Shown: one piece after another, positions 50,081 through 56,612 of the stretch
How positions within the stretch are numbered: position 1 is the stretch's first letter
How the letters are laid out: each line of letters begins with the position of its first letter
Origin: an uncultured Acetatifactor sp.
GTDB taxonomy: Bacteria; Bacillota; Clostridia; Lachnospirales; Lachnospiraceae
DNA: 64,000 nucleotides
Assembly (NCBI GenBank): GCA_947586055.1
Contig: CANPXL010000003.1
Span: forward strand, 1-64,000
Direction: 5' to 3'
Made by a program: the position numbers and the translations under genes
The notes under the pieces: generated by a model
The model's database searches: none
Seen by the model: only the letters and a program-made list of their open reading frames with translations
What the model was told of the DNA's origin: nothing

Positions 50081-50165
50081 CCGTCGTTTTCGGAACATAC
50101 GGCAATGGATCCGGCTGTTTTGAACCTGTCCGACAAACGATGCCGTCGGCCTGAGGTTTTATGCG

Positions 50166-50193
50166 CATATCTCGCTCCGACTCTTCATAAGAT
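50166..50193 (+). promoter_or_regulatory. Candidate SigE-type promoter of spoIIID
   Basis: CATATC (50166-50171) and CATAAGAT (50186-50193) resemble the -35 and -10 of mother-cell SigE promoters, with a spacer near the usual length. A small hairpin AGATGT/ACATCT (50190-50205) follows. The assignment leans on the known SigE control of spoIIID. Confidence 0.4.
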
Positions 50194-50220: not shown

Positions 50221-50352
50221 ATGAAAGAATATATCGAGGAGCGCGCCGTAAACATTGCGAATTACATTATCGACAGCAATGCTACGGTCCGGCAGACGGC
50301 GAAAGCCTTCGGAGTGAGCAAGAGTACGGTACATACGGTTGTAACGAATTAG
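50221..50352 (+). CDS. spoIIID: spoIIID, 5' part (interrupted gene)
   Basis: Codons 1-38 of the mother-cell sporulation regulator SpoIIID (MKEYIEERAVNIANYIIDSN, then RQTAKAFGVSKSTVH, the helix-turn-helix). After His38 the frame runs into element sequence (TVVTN, stop at 50350-50352), giving a 43-residue product that lacks the second, basic DNA-binding region. AAGGG lies 7 bp before the ATG. The missing half is intact at 55903-56058, and joining the GTACATA cores restores 87 codons in frame. Confidence 0.93.
   Translation: MKEYIEERAVNIANYIIDSNATVRQTAKAFGVSKSTVHTVVTN
50324..50345 (+). other. attL of the spoIIID element
   Basis: Left junction. Chromosomal GTACGGTA is followed by the central CA (50332-50333) and the element half site TACGGTTGT. 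The 7-bp core GTACATA (50329-50335) is identical to that at 55903-55909. Confidence 0.85.
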
Positions 50353-50535
50353 AACGGCTGGAAGGGAAGGCTGGTTGGGCGGTGAAGTAGAGAAGTGCGC
50401 CCCGCCACGGTTGAAAGCAAAATAGAAAAGGTTATTTTTGATATGCCTGTTGCATTTTTGAAACTCAGGCATTGCTTATAATTCGGTCAATGGCTGCAAC
50501 TGCTAAATATATATTATCCATCAAATAAAACGATA

Positions 50536-50562
50536 GTCAGGCAGTTCCTGTCAACTGTCTGA
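50536..50562 (-). terminator. Terminator of the tyrosine recombinase gene
   Basis: GTCAGGCAGTT pairs with AACTGTCTGAC around CCTGTC; on the minus strand a TTTT run follows. The 222 bp between the truncated spoIIID stop and the recombinase contain no other gene that I can support. Confidence 0.6.
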
Positions 50563-50575
50563 CCATCTTATGCGT

Positions 50576-51496
50576 CTATATGTGAAAATTCTTTCTCGGA
50601 TGCTTTTCTGTCAGGATGTTTCGTTGCTTTGATATTGCCACATGGGTATAAATTTCCGTGATATTAATGGAACTGTGTCCCAGCATTTCCTGAATATAAC
50701 GTATATCCACATCTGCTTCCAGCAGGCTGGTGGCGAAGGTGTGGCGGAACATGTGTGGAGTAATATGCAATTCTATTGCGGCAAGAGAGGTATATTTGTT
50801 TATCATTCTACGGACGCATTGATCGGATAATGCGCGGCCGTCCTGGTTTACGAAAAAGAAATTATTTTCCTGAATCTGCGGCAGAAATTCTCTTTTATAA
50901 TTTTCCAAAGCATGCATCACATCCTCATTTCCAATTTGCAGCCGACGTTCTTTGTCGCCCTTTCCATATATCAAAATGCTCTGATCCTGTAAATTGACAT
51001 CCTCTTTTTTGAGAGAACACAGTTCGGAAATCCTGATTCCTGTGGCAAAAAGCAGTTCGATTACGGCAGCGTCCCTTAATGCATTTTTTCGCTGGAATGT
51101 TGTCGGCGCTTCCCGGCACTGCCTGTATATAGTCGATAAAAGCGTTTCAACCGTATGTAAAGGAATGATCCTTGGCAACGTGATCGGCTCACGGAATTTT
51201 AACTGCATTTTATTAAAAGGATTTTTGTCAACGAGATCCCTGTATTCAAAATAGTGAAAAAGCGCCTTTACGGAAGCCAGTTTTCTCTTAACCGTTTTTG
51301 CTTTGTAATGGTGGTGCAGGGAAGAGATATAGTCCTCTAATACGGCAACGTCAATTTCTGAAAGGCTGGAAACCGAAATGCTGCCTATAAACTGGTTCAG
51401 GTCGATCCGGTAGGCTTTTAACGTTTTGCGGTCAAGTCTCTTTTGATTTTTACAGTAGTCTAAATAATGCTCCGTGAGTGTTTCCAAGTTGTCCAT
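50576..51496 (-). CDS. Tyrosine recombinase (XerC/D-like)
   Basis: 306 residues: an N-terminal SAM-like core-binding domain (about 5-95) and a catalytic domain with Arg155 (ATGIRISELC), the HxxR box (His248, Arg251 in HMFRHTFATSLL), His274 (MLGHSS) and the nucleophile Tyr283 (ITEIYTHV). All catalytic residues are present. AAGGAGAG precedes the start at 51496. It faces attL and is read away from the rest of the element. The serine recombinase is the better candidate for the spoIIID sites, so this enzyme may be a passenger or act on other sites. Confidence 0.9.
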   Translation of the reverse strand: MDNLETLTEHYLDYCKNQKRLDRKTLKAYRIDLNQFIGSISVSSLSEIDVAVLEDYISSLHHHYKAKTVKRKLASVKALFHYFEYRDLVDKNPFNKMQLKFREPITLPRIIPLHTVETLLSTIYRQCREAPTTFQRKNALRDAAVIELLFATGIRISELCSLKKEDVNLQDQSILIYGKGDKERRLQIGNEDVMHALENYKREFLPQIQENNFFFVNQDGRALSDQCVRRMINKYTSLAAIELHITPHMFRHTFATSLLEADVDIRYIQEMLGHSSINITEIYTHVAISKQRNILTEKHPRKNFHI

Positions 51497-51691
51497 TTTT
51501 ATCTCTCCTTCATTGTTTGGTTTGGCAGACTTTATGGATGTGCCATATAAATACATTAGCAGGCCTGTATTTTGAGTAAAGCGGAAAATGATAAATTTTA
51601 AGGCAGGCAGGGCTGGATTTAAAACAAGATATCAAAAGCGGATATCGTTTAAATGCAGCGCAGGCGGGTTGGCGCATCCGAGAAAAAAACA

Positions 51692-51719
51692 TTGACAAAG
51701 CAATATGGGGGGGTAAAAT
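51692..51719 (+). promoter_or_regulatory. Strong promoter inside the element
   Basis: A perfect TTGACA (51692-51697) and TAAAAT (51714-51719), 16 bp apart. It reads toward the terminator at 51886-51920 and the first small-protein gene. The 505 bp between the recombinase and that gene hold no other supported gene; one 18-codon frame (51811-51867) is too short to call. Confidence 0.65.
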
Positions 51720-51885
51720 ATAAAAAATAAAGGGAACGTTGTATGAAAAAGTAGAACGCAGAAGAGCAATAGAAGGCAGAACCTTTACTTTGACATGGGC
51801 AGGACAGTAAATGGGAGAATATTTTGTGAATGACCTCATTAAGGTAAACAGTGATCAGATGAACTGACACGGCGAAGGGACGGTC

Positions 51886-51920
51886 GCAGGCTTATGGGAA
51901 AAGTCTGCGGCTGTTTTTTT
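51886..51920 (+). terminator. Terminator or attenuator before the first small-protein gene
   Basis: GCAGGCTT pairs with AAGTCTGC (one mismatch) and is followed by a run of seven T. It would end a transcript of about 195 nt from the promoter at 51692-51719, which could be a small RNA or an attenuated leader. Confidence 0.65.
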
Positions 51921-52001
51921 AATTAAAAAAACAGTTAATAATTTCAGCCCGGTTTTCATAGAATGGACAAAGACCATAAGGGCAGGGAGGTGCTCTCCCC
52001 T

Positions 52002-52199
52002 GTGAGCGATTTTTTCCATGAAAAAAAGAGAAAGCTGAATTATACGATACATAATCCGAATACGGTGGAAGAAACGGTCAAGGTGCTGGTGGAGGTTTTT
52101 GTGCAGGCGAATATGGGGAAGGTGGAAAAGAAGTTAAACGAGGTAATTGAAATGACGGAAAGATTTGGACAGTCTGAAGCTATAGCGGTTGAGTTATAA
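52002..52199 (+). CDS. Small element protein, paralog A
   Basis: 65 residues from a GTG 9 bp after AGGGAGGTG. Its core KKRKLNYTIHNPNTVE, then a helix (VLVEVFVQANMGKVEKKLNE), is shared with paralog B at 53249-53437. The leader ATAGAATGGACAAAG (about 51956-51970) is also duplicated. No family recognised. Small basic-start proteins beside large serine recombinases can be directionality factors, but nothing here proves that. Confidence 0.6.
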   Translation: MSDFFHEKKRKLNYTIHNPNTVEETVKVLVEVFVQANMGKVEKKLNEVIEMTERFGQSEAIAVEL

Positions 52200-52370
52200 A
52201 TTGCAGATAAAAACGATTGTATCAGATGTGTAAGGTCATCAAAAAACGAAGAGAATTTCCGGTGCTCTTTTTGTTTTTGATATTGTGAAGCGGAAAGATT
52301 GAGGGTATAATTTAATCAGTGATATATAGATAAATCCATGAAAAGGGACAGATTCAGGAGGTATTCCGCA

Positions 52371-52694
52371 ATGTTATCCGAGGAAATGAGAGAAGAATTG
52401 GTGCGTGGATTGACAGATATCTTTCAAAATAATATTTCTATGATCATTTTATATGGTTCGGCGGCAAGGAATGAAGCAACGCTCGAGAGTGATGTTGCGA
52501 TCATTGTGAAAGATTCGATGGACAATGATACAAAAAGTCGCTTCGTCAGATGGGTTGCCTATATGGATCTCCGTTATGAAAGAGTATTTTCCATTGTGGA
52601 TATACAAGAAAGCAATCTAATGAAATGGGAAAAGGTACTGCCGTTTTATCAGAATATTCGTAAGGAGGGAATCGTCCTATGGAAGGCAGCTTAA
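52371..52694 (+). CDS. Degenerate MNT-domain nucleotidyltransferase
   Basis: 107 residues of the minimal nucleotidyltransferase fold. The motif GSX10DXD is present only in part: Gly29-Ser30 and Asp41 remain, but the second Asp is Ala43, so nucleotidyl transfer is probably lost. AGGAGG precedes ATG 52371. It overlaps a truncated HEPN start codon region, so this was once an MntA/HepT-like pair. Confidence 0.7.
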   Translation: MLSEEMREELVRGLTDIFQNNISMIILYGSAARNEATLESDVAIIVKDSMDNDTKSRFVRWVAYMDLRYERVFSIVDIQESNLMKWEKVLPFYQNIRKEGIVLWKAA

Positions 52695-52753
52695 AAGAGT
52701 TATCAGAATATCGCATGGCGAGAGCAAAAGAAATATATATTATGGATATTTGA
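52679..52753 (+). pseudogene. Remnant of a HEPN-domain gene
   Basis: Twenty-four codons (MEGSLKELSEYRMARAKEIY...) that look like the beginning of a HEPN protein, overlapping the MNT gene by 16 bp as toxin-antitoxin genes do, and then stopped by TGA. The rest of the HEPN domain is not found downstream. Confidence 0.6.
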
Positions 52754-53124
52754 ATGATTGAGAGTGCAGGTTTTGTTCGTATGGATGATAAGTTGACCAG
52801 TCAAATAGATATTATTGGATAAAGGATTTGTGAAACTCTGTCTGTGGACGCTCACAGGCAATGCTTGTCATTTTGTCTGTGTATATACGTAAGCAGTGCT
52901 TGCTGGGTGGAGAAAAATTTTCTTGATATGTGTATTGTGATATGACTTTAAGTATGTTGCTGTATAGATATACTGAGAAGTTAATTAATGTTGTAATTTA
53001 ATTGAGCGCTATGGAGTTACAGGAGACAATGGATTATCTGTGCTGAGCATAGCGACCGTAGAATAATAATTATATATAACACAGCGATAGGGCATTGACA
53101 GACTTGTGGAAACAGGTTTATTTG
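52754..53124 (+). other. AT-rich stretch without a supported gene
   Basis: I see no coding frame with a ribosome site. A TTGACA occurs at 53094-53099 but lacks a convincing -10. Short inexact repeats (GCAATGCTTG, GCAGTGCTTG at about 52859 and 52891) are present. It probably is debris between the two gene pairs. Confidence 0.5.
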
Positions 53125-53152
53125 ATGCTCTTTTTTATTATGAGCATTTTTT
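53125..53152 (+). terminator. Terminator before the second small-protein gene
   Basis: ATGCTC (53125-53130) pairs with GAGCAT (53142-53147), followed by TTTTTT. Like the first small-protein gene, this one is preceded by a terminator-like hairpin. Confidence 0.6.
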
Positions 53153-53248
53153 AAGTATATTGCACGGCCAGAGACATTTCTGATAATATTTTCAGATTGA
53201 TTCTCATAGAATGGACAAAGGTTATTAAGAGGGGAGGTGTGTCCCACT

Positions 53249-53437
53249 GTGCAAACTTTCTATGAGAAAACATTTTCTGAGAAAAAGAGAAAACTGAATT
53301 ATATCATACATAATCCAAACACAGTGGAGTATACTGCCCCAATGCTGCTGGATATATTGTTGCAGGTCAATGAGAAAAAGGTGGAGAGAAAGCTGCGGGA
53401 GATGGCGGGGGAGCATAATAAATTTTTGATTGTATAG
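53249..53437 (+). CDS. Small element protein, paralog B
   Basis: 62 residues from a GTG after GAGGGGAGGTG, placed as in paralog A. It shares KKRKLNYIIHNPNTVE, the following helix and the leader ATAGAATGGACAAAG (about 53206-53220). The two genes and leaders therefore arose by duplication inside the element. No known family. Confidence 0.6.
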   Translation: MQTFYEKTFSEKKRKLNYIIHNPNTVEYTAPMLLDILLQVNEKKVERKLREMAGEHNKFLIV

Positions 53438-53539
53438 TATCGGAACTTAAGGTAGAATAATGATATAGAGTTGATTTTGAATAGTTATGGAACGTCCATA
53501 GGATTTGCTTATGAAGATTGGAAAGGAAACTGGCAGTAT

Positions 53540-53833
53540 ATGTGTTACAGTATTGATGAAATAAAAAACAGAACTACACCTATTGCAAAGGCGTATGGAA
53601 TTGAACGGATGAGTCTCTTTGGCTCTTATGCCCGTGGGGAAGCGAACGATGACAGCGACGTGGATCTGTATATAGAGCGTGGCAAAATGAAAAGCCTGCT
53701 GCAGTATTTTGCATTTGTCGATGAATTAGAAGATGCTTTAGAGTGTCACGTGGATGTGGTTACGACAGGAATTGAGGACAAGCAGTTTCTGTCGGGGATT
53801 ATGCAAGAGGGAGTACTTTTGTATGAAGAATGA
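53540..53833 (+). CDS. mntA: MntA-like antitoxin nucleotidyltransferase
   Basis: 97 residues. The complete minimal-nucleotidyltransferase motif GSX10DXD is present: Gly28-Ser29, Asp40 and Asp42 (FGSYARGEANDDSDVDLYIE). In type VII toxin-antitoxin systems MntA adds AMP units to the HepT toxin and silences it. ATG 53540 has GGAAAGGAAA about 12 bp upstream. The gene overlaps hepT by 11 bp. Confidence 0.88.
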   Translation: MCYSIDEIKNRTTPIAKAYGIERMSLFGSYARGEANDDSDVDLYIERGKMKSLLQYFAFVDELEDALECHVDVVTTGIEDKQFLSGIMQEGVLLYEE

Positions 53834-54158
53834 GGATATTGCAATCATTAAGAAAATGATGAAATACTGCAATGATATTAATATTCTTATGGTTCGGTTC
53901 AATAAAAATTTTGAACAGTATAAAAAGGATATTTCTTTTCAATATGCCTGCAATATGTGCATTATTCAGATTGGAGAACTGGCCAATAGATTATCGGATG
54001 AAGTCAGGGAAGCTAATGAAGATATTCCGTGGCGTGCGATCAGAGGGATGAGAAATCTACACGCACATGATTATGAAAATGTTGATCTGGAGATTGTGTG
54101 GAATACATTAGTGGAGGATATTCCGATGTTAGAGAAAAGATTGGAAAAGTTGTTGTGA
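53823..54158 (+). CDS. hepT: HepT-like HEPN ribonuclease toxin
   Basis: 111-residue helical HEPN protein. The active-site motif RX4HXY is complete (Arg77, His82, Tyr84 in RNLHAHDY). The known HepT toxin cleaves RNA and is inactivated by AMPylation of the Tyr. The overlap with mntA indicates coupled expression. Inside an element that must stay in the genome, the pair could act as an addiction module. Confidence 0.88.
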   Translation: MKNEDIAIIKKMMKYCNDINILMVRFNKNFEQYKKDISFQYACNMCIIQIGELANRLSDEVREANEDIPWRAIRGMRNLHAHDYENVDLEIVWNTLVEDIPMLEKRLEKLL

Positions 54159-54251
54159 GAATATTACTGCAGGAGATATTGTATTTTTATATAACAATGG
54201 CATATAAAGTGAGAAAATACAAGGAATAGCATTTAAGGAAAGGCCATCTTC

Positions 54252-55910
54252 ATGAACATCGCCGCCTACTGCCGTGTCTCCACCGATAAAGCCGACCAAC
54301 TAAACAGCCTGGAAGCACAAAAAATTTTTTTCTCTGAATACACACAGCGCACCGGTGACAACCTTGTGCGTCTCTACGCCGACGAGGGCATATCCGGCAC
54401 GAAGATCAAGAACCGCAAGGAGTTTCTGCGCATGATGTCCGATGCGGAGCAGGGCCTGTTCGACATGGTGGTGGTAAAGGATATTTCCCGTTTTGCCAGA
54501 AATACGGTGGACTTGCTTCAAAATATCCGCAGGCTGAAGGCGCTTGGCATCGAAACGCAGTTTTTGACCGCCAATATGACCAGCATGGGCAACAGTGAAT
54601 TTGTGCTGACCATCTTTGGCGCGCTGGCGCAGGAGGAAAGCGCAAACACTTCCAAACGTGTGAAATTCGGAAAAAAGATGAACGCAGAAAAAGGCCGGGT
54701 CCCCAACATCGTCTATGGTTACGACAAGACCATAGGCGACTATTTCAATTTGGAGATCAATAAGCAGGAAGCGGATGTCATCCGACAGATCTATACATGG
54801 TATTTGCAGGAGGGGGACGGCGCTGCCAAGATTGCCAATATGTTAAACGAGAGAGGATTAAAAACAAAGCGGAATTGCAGCTGGAGCCAGAACGCGGTCT
54901 GCCGCATTTTGACCAACGAACTTTACACCGGAAAAGTAATCAACGGCAAGCAGGAAGTTGAGGATTTCCTGACCGGAAAGCGAAGGGAAAAGGATGAAAC
55001 GGAGTGGCTGGTCACAGAACGTCCCGACTTAAAAATCATAGAGCCGGAAGAATTTGAAAAGGCGCAGGAGATTCTTCACGGCAGGCATGCCGCCTTTCAC
55101 ATGAACAGAGAGCGCCAGAGCAACAAGTATCTCTTCTCCACGATCATACGTTGTAAGGAATGCGGCTGGTCTTTTCGCAGAACGGTGCGCACATACAAGA
55201 ATACTTATGTCCGCTGGGTATGTTCCGGGCACAACGGCAAAGGCGCGGACAGCTGCCCCAATGCGGTTACAGTGGATGAGGATGAACTGATTGATGTGCT
55301 GCAGGAGTATTTTAACTATATTCTCAGCCGGCGAAAAAAAGTAGTAAAGTATGTGGTGAATGAGTTTCAGCGTGTCTACAGGGCGAAGGATGAGAATCTG
55401 GAATATGAAAGGGAACTGAAAAGCCGGTTGAACAAGTTGACAAAAGTCCGCGAGAAATATATGGATATGTATGCGGATGATCTGATCACAAGGCAGGAAC
55501 TGAACGATAAGATTGGCGGTTTCAGGCAGGAGATGGAGCAGCTGGAAAAGGAACTGAAAATGGTGTCGTATCATTTGACAAAGAGAGAGCAGCTGGAAAG
55601 CGTTTTAAATCGTACTTTTAAAGAGATTGAGGATATCACGGATATCCGCGAAATGACGAACGCCCAGCTCAGGCGCTTGATCCGGAAGATCGAGGTAGAC
55701 AAAGAGGGCAATGTAGAGATCTTTCTGCGTTTGTTCGGAGAGCTGGGGCTGGAAGAGACGGTTCTGATTGAGGACAACTGCGCTATAGATGCGGATATTT
55801 CAGATATCAGCAGTTTGGCAGAACCGGACAAAGTGACAAAGTGCGACCTTCATGCGAAGGCTGATGAAAATTCTGCCCAAACCGTTCCAAATTATCACAA
55901 CCGTACATAA
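54252..55910 (+). CDS. Large serine recombinase (SpoIVCA-like)
   Basis: 552 residues: a resolvase domain with nucleophile Ser10 (YCRVSTDK) and the catalytic Arg region (KDISRFARNT), a recombinase domain (about 155-265), a zinc ribbon (CKECGWSF ... CSGHNGKGADSCPN, about 300-345) and a coiled coil (about 390-460). It has the domain order of SpoIVCA/phiC31-type integrases. AAGGAAAGG precedes the ATG. The TAA stop (55908-55910) lies in attR and needs the chromosomal AA. In the excised circle the frame continues into the attL side for 18 more codons (beginning YGCNELERLEG), so the integrated and circular forms encode different C termini. Confidence 0.93.
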   Translation: MNIAAYCRVSTDKADQLNSLEAQKIFFSEYTQRTGDNLVRLYADEGISGTKIKNRKEFLRMMSDAEQGLFDMVVVKDISRFARNTVDLLQNIRRLKALGIETQFLTANMTSMGNSEFVLTIFGALAQEESANTSKRVKFGKKMNAEKGRVPNIVYGYDKTIGDYFNLEINKQEADVIRQIYTWYLQEGDGAAKIANMLNERGLKTKRNCSWSQNAVCRILTNELYTGKVINGKQEVEDFLTGKRREKDETEWLVTERPDLKIIEPEEFEKAQEILHGRHAAFHMNRERQSNKYLFSTIIRCKECGWSFRRTVRTYKNTYVRWVCSGHNGKGADSCPNAVTVDEDELIDVLQEYFNYILSRRKKVVKYVVNEFQRVYRAKDENLEYERELKSRLNKLTKVREKYMDMYADDLITRQELNDKIGGFRQEMEQLEKELKMVSYHLTKREQLESVLNRTFKEIEDITDIREMTNAQLRRLIRKIEVDKEGNVEIFLRLFGELGLEETVLIEDNCAIDADISDISSLAEPDKVTKCDLHAKADENSAQTVPNYHNRT

Positions 55911-55915
55911 AGACG
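55893..55915 (+). other. attR of the spoIIID element
   Basis: Right junction. Element half site ACAACCGTA, central CA (55906-55907), then chromosomal TAAAGACGTAAC. With attL it rebuilds attP ACAACCGTACATACGGTTGT, with perfect 9-bp inverted half sites around CA. A CA centre is non-palindromic and so fixes direction. Confidence 0.85.
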
Positions 55916-56058
55916 TAACCGACCGCCTTGCGCAGATCAATCCCGCTCTGGCGAAGCAGGCCCGCCAGGTGCTTGATGTGAATAAGTCAGAGCGGCACAT
56001 ACGGGGCGGTATGGCAACGAAGGAAAAATATCTCCACAGGCAGCACACGGAAGACTGA
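55903..56058 (+). CDS. spoIIID: spoIIID, 3' part (interrupted gene)
   Basis: Codons 37-87 of SpoIIID, from the shared Val-His (GTA CAT) through KDVTDRLAQINPALAKQA, NKSERHIRGGMATKEKYL and the stop. This is the conserved C-terminal basic region that completes DNA binding. It has no start codon or ribosome site of its own in this frame. A strong terminator follows. Confidence 0.93.
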   Translation, partial: VHKDVTDRLAQINPALAKQARQVLDVNKSERHIRGGMATKEKYLHRQHTED

Positions 56059-56116: not shown

Positions 56117-56158
56117 TCGGCTAATCTGCATCGGCATGTAATTTTCTGTCCTGACATG

Positions 56159-56303
56159 GTAACAGTTCAGCGCGCGCCATTCGCAAAGCCGCGCTGCCGC
56201 GCTATTCGGCGCTGCGCGCCTGCCTTTGCTCATGAAATGGCGCTCCCTCGGCAGTTATATTCGGCGAAAAATTTGTGCGAGCACCATTTTTCGCCCGGAC
56301 ATG
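56159..56303 (+). repeat. Structured intergenic repeat, copy 5 (tandem unit 1)
   Basis: First of three head-to-tail units with an exact 145-bp period. It starts GTAACAGTTCAG but lacks the right arm of the second hairpin and the right terminal repeat; the sequence CGGACATG joins it to the next unit. Confidence 0.9.
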
Positions 56304-56448
56304 GTAACAGTTCAGCGCGCGCCATTCGCAAAGCCGCGCTGTCGCGCTATTCGGCGCTGCGCGCCTGCCTTTGCTCATGAAATGGCGCTCCCTCGGCAGT
56401 TATATTCGGCGAAAAATTTGTGCGAGCACCATTTTTCGCCCGGACATG
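56304..56448 (+). repeat. Structured intergenic repeat, copy 6 (tandem unit 2)
   Basis: Second 145-bp unit, nearly identical to unit 1, with the same missing right end. The identical junctions point to tandem duplication rather than separate insertions. Confidence 0.9.
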
Positions 56449-56612
56449 GTAACAGTTCAGCGCGCGCCATTCGCAAAGCCGCGCTGTCGCGCTATTCGGC
56501 GCTGCGCGCCTGCCTTTGCTCATGAAATGGCGCTCCCTCGGCAGTCATGTTCGGCGAAAAATTTGTGCGAGCACCATTTTTCGCCGAATATAACTGCCGG
56601 CTGAACTGTTAC
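56449..56612 (+). repeat. Structured intergenic repeat, copy 7 (tandem unit 3, full length)
   Basis: Full 164 bp. Terminal repeats GTAACAGTTCAG and CTGAACTGTTAC enclose hairpin A (GCGCCATTCGCAAAG pairing with CTTTGC...AATGGCGC) and hairpin B (TTCGGCGAAAAAT pairing with ATTTTTCGCCGAA). This is the reference copy for the family. Confidence 0.92.

What the first reader, a model, noticed from the sequence alone, without database searches (positions are those of the whole stretch)
50221..56058. spoIIID is split by a 5.6-kb skin-like element
Seen directly: codons 1-38 of SpoIIID lie at 50221-50334 and codons 37-87 at 55903-56058, with identical GTACATA cores, and joining them restores one 87-codon frame. 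Between them is a 5,574-bp element with a large serine recombinase. Established: sigK in B. subtilis and C. difficile is interrupted by skin elements that a SpoIVCA-type serine recombinase removes in the mother cell, and spsM is split by SPbeta. Inference: the spoIIID element is excised during sporulation. I do not recall a described spoIIID case. SpoIIID acts early in the mother cell, so excision would have to come before or with SigE activity, unlike sigK. The alternative is a simple insertion that has ended sporulation.
Basis: partly seen in the sequence, partly recalled or inferred. Interest (0 to 1): 0.95.

Follow-up and report, generated by a model that had tools for sequence, protein, structure and literature searches.

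The report
Removable DNA insert splits sporulation regulator
In this bacterium, and in dozens of related species, the gene for an early spore-formation regulator (SpoIIID) is cut in two by a mobile DNA element that is predicted to be cut out again in the mother cell during sporulation, so spore development would likely depend on a programmed DNA rearrangement at an earlier step than in the described cases.

Summary
The split is real. Codons 1-38 of spoIIID (50221-50334) and the rest (from 55903) are separated by a 5,574-bp element with a large serine recombinase; joining at the shared GTACATA gives one 87-codon frame. PF12116 finds no other spoIIID in the genome (97% complete). It is not a one-off. 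Of 80 loci with the closest relatives of this recombinase, 75 have the 3' half of spoIIID directly downstream. In 393 genomes of the order, 29 carry the recombinase and 28 of these have only spoIIID halves. Halves stay open and under purifying selection. Split genomes keep spoIVA (42 of 44 tested, 16 of 16 with full spoIIID, 1 of 20 without). The elements share an undescribed ~60-residue protein (71 of 80 loci) whose upstream DNA resembles host spoIIID (sigma-E-type) promoters, whereas the recombinase's does not. Best reading: a recombinase made without sigma-E plus a sigma-E-controlled directionality factor excise the element in the mother cell, as for sigK in C. difficile but one regulatory step earlier. 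Excision itself was not observed. No spoIIID case turned up in eight literature searches. New variant of a known kind.

The parts
50165..50193 (+). sigma-E-type promoter of spoIIID (GCATATC-N14-CATAAGAT)
   Evidence: 23.7 bits with the matrix built from host spoIIID promoters (this one is in the training set); coordinates
50221..50334 (+). spoIIID 5' part, codons 1-38 (reads on 5 more codons into the element)
   Evidence: PF12116 positions 1-42
50329..50335 (+). left core GTACATA; crossover predicted at the CA (50332-50333) of His38 (CAT)
   Evidence: CA position inferred from the centre of the arms; codon 38 is CAT in 21 of 21 5' halves of related loci
50336..50357 (.). element-side arm of attL, CGGTTGTAACGAATTAGAACGG
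   Evidence: reverse complement matches the other arm at 17 of 22
50329..55902 (.). the intervening element (5,574 bp from core to core)
   Evidence: G+C 41.7%, flanking 500-bp steps mostly 46-56%
50576..51556 (-). XerC/XerD-like tyrosine recombinase, cargo; not part of the usual element set
   Evidence: close relative (80%) seen in 1 of the 80 related loci within the fetched flanks (L047)
51936..51964 (+). sigma-E-like promoter before the first small protein (TAATAAT-N14-CATAGAAT)
   Evidence: 17.5 bits; predicted
51963..52199 (+). small protein, first copy (start probably GTG 52002, after a Shine-Dalgarno-like GGGAGGTG); candidate directionality factor
52338..52694 (+). nucleotidyltransferase-like protein (Polbeta), cargo
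53184..53212 (+). sigma-E-like promoter before the second small protein (TAATATT-N14-CATAGAAT)
   Evidence: 15.7 bits; predicted
53237..53437 (+). small protein, second copy; candidate directionality factor
53471..53833 (+). nucleotidyltransferase (antitoxin-like) of a MNT/HEPN-type pair, cargo
   Evidence: pairing inferred from neighbourhood
53754..54158 (+). HepT-like RNase of the same pair, cargo
54252..55910 (+). large serine recombinase, 552 residues; its stop codon runs over the right core
   Evidence: Resolvase, Recombinase and Zn-ribbon domains
55882..55902 (.). element-side arm of attR, CCGTTCCAAATTATCACAACC
55903..55909 (+). right core GTACATA
55903..56058 (+). spoIIID 3' part, codons 37-87 and stop
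   Evidence: PF12116 positions 34-80

Best explanation
spoIIID is split inside its helix-turn-helix by a serine-recombinase element that is likely excised in the mother cell, where a sigma-E-controlled small protein is predicted to switch the recombinase from integration to excision and so restore an intact spoIIID. Steps: (1) shown: one element with a large serine recombinase separates two open halves that join in frame. (2) Inferred: the recombinase is made without sigma-E and by itself only integrates. (3) Predicted: when sigma-E becomes active in the mother cell, the small protein is made from a sigma-E-type promoter of the same build as spoIIID's own, acts on the recombinase and allows attL x attR recombination at the CA of codon His38. 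(4) Inferred: the joined spoIIID is then transcribed from its own sigma-E promoter, so SpoIIID appears only after a DNA rearrangement. (5) Inferred: the forespore, without sigma-E, keeps the element and passes it on. A SpoIIID-like box over the start of the small-protein promoter could let new SpoIIID shut the switch off; this is a lead only.
For: Joined frame and att arms. No other spoIIID in the genome. Same junction in 75 of 80 related-recombinase loci (the best 80 of 176). Recombinase found in 29 of 393 genomes of the order; 28 of the 29 are among the 46 genomes with spoIIID halves only, 1 among the 221 with full-length spoIIID: (Fisher p about 1e-24; genomes are related, so nominal). 77 of 79 3' halves scored were open and intact; dN/dS medians 0.19 (3') and 0.15 (5') for split genes, no internal stop in 78 and 22 sequences. 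Small protein in 71 of 80 loci and in 24 of 46 halves-only against 3 of 221 full-length genomes. Promoter contrast: small-protein upstreams above the 95% shuffle level in 53 of 70, recombinase upstreams in 3 of 78; the reverse for a sigma-A pattern, 1 of 69 and 31 of 78. SigE, SigG, uninterrupted SigK and SpoIVA present in the window's genome. SpoIVA over cut-off in 42 of 44 halves-only genomes, 16 of 16 with full spoIIID, 1 of 20 without spoIIID. Single-contig genomes with both halves on one contig: G251, G383, G080. Known precedent for the logic: C. difficile skin, with a sigma-A recombinase gene and a directionality factor under sigma-E and SpoIIID (PMC5025042, abstract and passages).
Against: Excision, circle or restored junction were never seen. 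The small protein has no known family and no meaningful sequence or fold match in the PDB, so its role is inferred. Its sigma-E promoter is a sequence match; 17 of 70 upstreams score below the 95% shuffle level, and the sequences are related. The window's own recombinase lacks a good sigma-A promoter (8 of 12 matches), and 47 of 78 recombinase upstreams stay under 10 of 12. 5 of the 29 recombinase genomes had no small-protein match; 18 of the 46 halves-only genomes had no window-type recombinase at E 1e-150, of which 5 showed a more distant one beside a half. dN/dS of split genes is higher than that of intact ones (0.06 and 0.11; different species sets). Three of the 80 recombinase loci sit at non-spoIIID sites (L067, L082, L083). 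Whether the host sporulates is not known.
Confidence: 0.8

Rival explanations
1. A plain insertion has inactivated spoIIID and ended or crippled sporulation; the element is a parasite that uses a conserved target.
For: No excision seen. SpoIIID is required for sporulation in C. difficile (PMC5025042 passage), so a fixed split should hurt. One extra 5' half is decayed (G036; that genome also has a full copy).
Against: Halves open and selected; spoIVA kept in 42 of 44; sigma factor genes kept in the window's genome; a sigma-E-like promoter on an element gene. In G006 and G349, where an element remnant has no recombinase match near it, an intact spoIIID is present.
Confidence: 0.1
2. The element excises, but at random or under stress like an ordinary mobile element, and a few sporulating cells happen to have an intact spoIIID.
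For: Elements carry varied cargo, one with mobilisation-like genes by eye (L154); serine recombinases serve many mobile elements. One related contig (L124, a k=127 assembly by its name) starts 127 bases before the left divergence point and ends 132 after the right one, as expected if the empty site was also in that sample; weak.
Against: The small-protein promoters look sigma-E-type and not sigma-A-type.
Confidence: 0.08
3. The split is an assembly or binning artefact.
For: Many genomes here are metagenome assemblies; two of the 46 halves-only calls are not insertions (G226 looks like a frameshift, G215 a contig edge).
Against: Both halves on one contig in the window and in single-contig genomes G251, G383 and G080; 17 of 17 genomes of the strains and isolates I chose among the 80 loci have halves only (one of them, G444, shows one half).
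Confidence: 0.02

Closest known systems
skin element of Clostridioides difficile sigK (CD1231 recombinase, CD1234 directionality factor)
   Same: Serine recombinase gene without sigma-E control, and a small element gene under sigma-E that sets direction (paper: PMC5025042; here predicted).
   Different: Target is spoIIID, one step earlier. The C. difficile switch itself needs SpoIIID, which cannot hold here. The small proteins are not shown to be related.
skin of Bacillus subtilis sigK (SpoIVCA)
   Same: Mother-cell regulator gene split by a serine-recombinase element.
   Different: There the recombinase gene itself is under sigma-E and SpoIIID (PMC5025042 passage). Target gene and gene content differ.
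gin element in gerE of Bacillus cereus ATCC10987 (GirC, GirX)
   Same: Non-phage element splitting a very small mother-cell transcription-factor gene, with recombinase and an extra factor (PMC5595907, passages).
   Different: gerE is late (sigma-K stage); gin is 28.6 kb with three recombinases.
SP-beta in spsM (SprA/SprB), vfbin, vrin, yin in yabG
   Same: Elements in sporulation genes removed by recombination (PMC4191935, PMC6957869, PMC10747680, passages).
   Different: Targets are structural or late genes; these are prophages or prophage-like.

Membership tests
Large serine recombinase | Resolvase, Recombinase and zinc-ribbon domains in one protein | tested here: met
Large serine recombinase | Catalyses attP x attB and attL x attR | not testable with these tools
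   needs a recombination assay
Sporulation-gene intervening element (skin, gin, SP-beta type) | Interrupts a sporulation gene so that precise removal restores the frame | tested here: met
Sporulation-gene intervening element (skin, gin, SP-beta type) | Encodes its own site-specific recombinase next to a core shared by both ends | tested here: met
Sporulation-gene intervening element (skin, gin, SP-beta type) | Target expressed in the mother cell | tested here: inconclusive
   spoIIID promoter has sigma-E form; expression not measured; mother-cell role known from B. subtilis and C. difficile
Sporulation-gene intervening element (skin, gin, SP-beta type) | Excised during sporulation | not testable with these tools
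   no cells or reads
Sporulation-gene intervening element (skin, gin, SP-beta type) | Directionality factor in the element, needed for excision | tested here: inconclusive
   recurrent small protein with sigma-E-like promoter; function not tested
Prophage or prophage remnant | Phage structural genes | tested here: not met
   none of the seven element proteins scanned hits a phage structural family in Pfam; no phage record over 60% identical to the recombinase
skin element proper | Inserted in sigK | tested here: not met
   SigK is one uninterrupted 209-codon frame in this genome

The most novel reading that the evidence does not exclude
In a sizeable part of the window's order of gut Clostridia (about one in six SpoIIID-bearing genomes), making SpoIIID requires a programmed DNA excision switched on directly by sigma-E through a new family of directionality factors. 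Several recombinase lineages have converged on the same codon of spoIIID, SpoIIID may then shut the switch off, and spoIVA is split in the same way in at least one species, so early mother-cell development in these bacteria is gated by DNA rearrangements.
Probability: 0.6. Interest if true: 0.9.

Novelty: new variant of a known kind. Interest (0 to 1): 0.82.

Why it matters
The programmed excisions in sporulation described in the passages I read act on late or structural genes (sigK, gerE, spsM, spoVFB, spoVR, yabG). A split spoIIID puts the switch at an early mother-cell regulator below sigma-E and removes the option of using SpoIIID to time it. It would also mean that many gut commensals look as if they lack spoIIID, because each half is short, and may be wrongly scored as non-sporulating. 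The recombinase, att sites and small protein are short and could be tested directly in laboratory strains.

Tried and rejected
Excised form in public data: an attP-like pattern in IMG/VR gave one match, without the flanking arms, judged chance. Seven of the 50 genomes hold an extra full-length spoIIID; each was compared with the split copy or element locus and is a different sequence (at most 84% identical, or no alignment), so these are not the excised form and probably reflect mixed bins or a second copy. The k=127 contig L124 is only a weak hint. Phage origin: no phage record over 60% identity; the four IMG/VR contigs at 68-71% carry the small protein but no spoIIID halves in the fetched stretches. 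Homology of the small protein to a solved directionality factor: none by sequence or fold (model mean pLDDT 76). First promoter matrix failed through a wrong spacing in my script (4 training sites); rebuilt with 52. Whether named isolates form spores: nothing found in two search listings (no paper of these opened for it).

Considered and rejected: two separate functional half-proteins (the cut lies in the helix-turn-helix); a spoIIID copy elsewhere.
Full report
Observation. The window carries SpoIIID codons 1-38 at 50221-50334 and codons 37-87 at 55903-56058, with GTACATA at 50329 and 55903, 5,574 bp apart; joined, they give one 87-codon frame. PF12116 matches only these two pieces in the whole genome (2.81 Mb, 57 contigs, 97% complete). 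The element's ends carry arms that are near reverse complements (17 of 22), centred on the core, as in attP sites of serine recombinases; the predicted crossover is the CA of the His38 codon. In G219 the 5' half carries CAA at this codon and the 3' half CAT, which fits exchange within CA.

Content. The element has a tyrosine recombinase, two copies of a small protein, a nucleotidyltransferase, a nucleotidyltransferase/HepT pair and a 552-residue large serine recombinase whose stop codon runs over the right core. None of the seven proteins scanned hits a phage structural family. A close relative of the tyrosine recombinase was seen in only one of the 80 related loci (L047), so it is taken as cargo.

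Recurrence. A scan of one-genome-per-species contigs with the serine recombinase gave 176 relatives, of which the best 80 were kept (by record title Lachnospiraceae, Blautia, Oscillospiraceae, Pseudoflavonifractor, Christensenella and others). In 75 of 80 the 3' half of spoIIID begins within 400 bp of the recombinase. The five others: L049 and L122, whose contigs end within about 50 bases of the core, and L067, L082, L083, where other DNA follows. Distances between halves within one locus ranged from 3.7 to 11 kb in 20 loci. Other genomes show 15.4 kb (G251), 11.6 kb (G383), 38.5 kb (G175) and 120 kb (G080). More distant serine recombinases (38-69% identical) sit beside spoIIID halves cut at the same codon in G042, G092, G126, G175 and G219; in G273 and G323 the cut is about one to two codons further on.

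Frequency. In 393 genomes of the order (at least 90% complete), 272 match PF12116: 221 full length, 46 halves only by E-value band, 5 weak (bands set by me, rows transcribed by hand). Two of the 46 are not insertions on inspection (G226, G215), and some show one half only. The window-type recombinase (E at most 1e-150) is in 29 of 393 genomes; 28 have halves only. The exception, G343, has a full spoIIID and a recombinase cut off by a contig end. Of the 18 halves-only genomes without it, five show a more distant recombinase beside a half; for the rest none was found beside a half in what I fetched, or nothing was fetched. In a phylum-wide sample of 398 genomes, 337 match and 5 fall in the halves band, the window's genome included (counted by eye, not inspected), so the trait is concentrated in this order. 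Of the 80 loci's genomes I tested 67 (17, 50; 13 not tested): 58 have halves only (several with one half found), 7 also a full-length copy of different sequence, 2 none.

Selection. Of 79 3' halves scored, 77 were open and of normal length; in one the script missed the start position (L054) and one ran off its contig (L124). dN/dS medians for pairs with dS 0.15-1.2 were 0.19 (3', 133 pairs) and 0.15 (5', 27 pairs) for split genes, and 0.06 and 0.11 for intact ones, from different species. Between the window and L057, both split, dS/dN were 0.53/0.023 (5') and 1.11/0.043 (3'). The higher values of split genes may mean weaker constraint; they are far from neutral.

Sporulation genes. In the window's genome SigE, SigG and an uninterrupted SigK frame are present by NCBIfam (SigE over both cut-offs, SigG and SigK each over one of two), and SpoIVA. 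Across 80 chosen genomes, SpoIVA was over cut-off in 42 of 44 with spoIIID halves (G183 had no match, G247 a piece at a contig edge; one of the 42, G054, has spoIVA itself in two pieces), in 16 of 16 with full spoIIID (13 from the window's genus) and in 1 of 20 without spoIIID (20 of the 121 genomes without a match, 13 of them from two genera). The split genomes therefore look like spore formers, not like the lineages that have lost the pathway, with the caveat that the control sets are small and uneven.

The small protein. A 55-80-residue family (consensus KKRKLNYRFHNPN) occurs in 71 of 80 loci after three rounds of search, a few as pieces at contig ends; of the nine without, six have under 800 bp upstream of the recombinase, three (L102, L103, L114) have 1.6-4.7 kb. 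It is in 27 of 393 genomes: 24 with halves only, 3 with full spoIIID. A profile search gives 3,593 proteins; of the best 120 listed, those with a name shown are called hypothetical. No Pfam, NCBIfam or PHROG family.

Promoters. A matrix from 52 host spoIIID promoters (of 55 distinct sequences, all with spacing 14) scored the upstream DNA of the small protein above the 95% shuffle level in 53 of 70 cases and above 99% in 30 of 70; for the recombinase 3 of 78 and 0 of 78. The window's two copies score 17.5 and 15.7 bits. A recalled sigma-E consensus gives the same direction (50 of 70 at 11 or more of 15, 25% in shuffles; recombinase 28 of 78, 31% in shuffles; host spoIIID 56 of 58). A sigma-A pattern is enriched before the recombinase (31 of 78 at 10 or more of 12, 6% in shuffles) and not before the small protein (1 of 69); the window's own recombinase does not show it. 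Many sequences are related, so these are not independent trials. A recalled SpoIIID box (WWRRACAR) follows the -10 in 38 of 68, 10% in shuffles.

Mechanism. In C. difficile, CD1231 is expressed constitutively and CD1234, under sigma-E and SpoIIID, is the directionality factor (PMC5025042, abstract and passages). The spoIIID elements show the same layout by prediction, with the difference that sigma-E alone must suffice. I infer excision in the mother cell after sigma-E activation.

Literature. Eight searches of the held library aimed at this (not all used the word spoIIID) and passages in twelve papers showed no split spoIIID; two further searches asked about the isolates. One survey lists spoIIID among genes missing in one or two genomes 'because of a frameshift or a possible sequencing error' (PMC3533761). 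Subscription papers, preprints and supplements were not searched.

Limits. Excision, expression and spore formation were not tested.

Noticed in passing
L174 (G054:C54:2800-12500), junctions near locus 1769 and 8658: In G054, where only one spoIIID half was found, spoIVA is in two open pieces 6.9 kb apart with a shared TATACATAT, a 527-residue serine recombinase (34% identical to the window's over part) and a large sensor-kinase gene between them: apparently a second split mother-cell gene, with a similar core.
   Followed up: partly
L172 (G451), L173 (G458), L034 (G006); G428: Repeats of spoIIID promoter plus 5' half plus an attL arm every few kb (211 of 211 bases identical in G451); in G006 the downstream copy is a full spoIIID and no recombinase is found nearby. 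How the host 5' half is duplicated is unexplained.
   Followed up: partly
L142 (G217:C1:5000-16000): The 5' and 3' halves of spoIIID lie about 2.1 kb apart in opposite orientation, as if inverted; no recombinase match nearby.
   Followed up: no
L143 (G126:C8:8000-15500): Serine recombinase (46% identical) inside a 6-kb spoIIID element but in the opposite orientation to the host gene.
   Followed up: no
L067, L082, L083: Close relatives of the recombinase at sites other than spoIIID; the genomes of L082 and L083 have no spoIIID match at all, that of L067 has a full one.
   Followed up: partly
window 56153-56600: Three tandem copies of a 145-bp G+C-rich repeat just downstream of the spoIIID 3' half (starts 56153, 56298, 56443).
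   Followed up: no
upstream of the recombinase in related loci: Paired AACAGA-type repeats within 120 bp upstream of the recombinase in 35 of 78 upstreams (0.4% in shuffles), possibly an operator.
   Followed up: no
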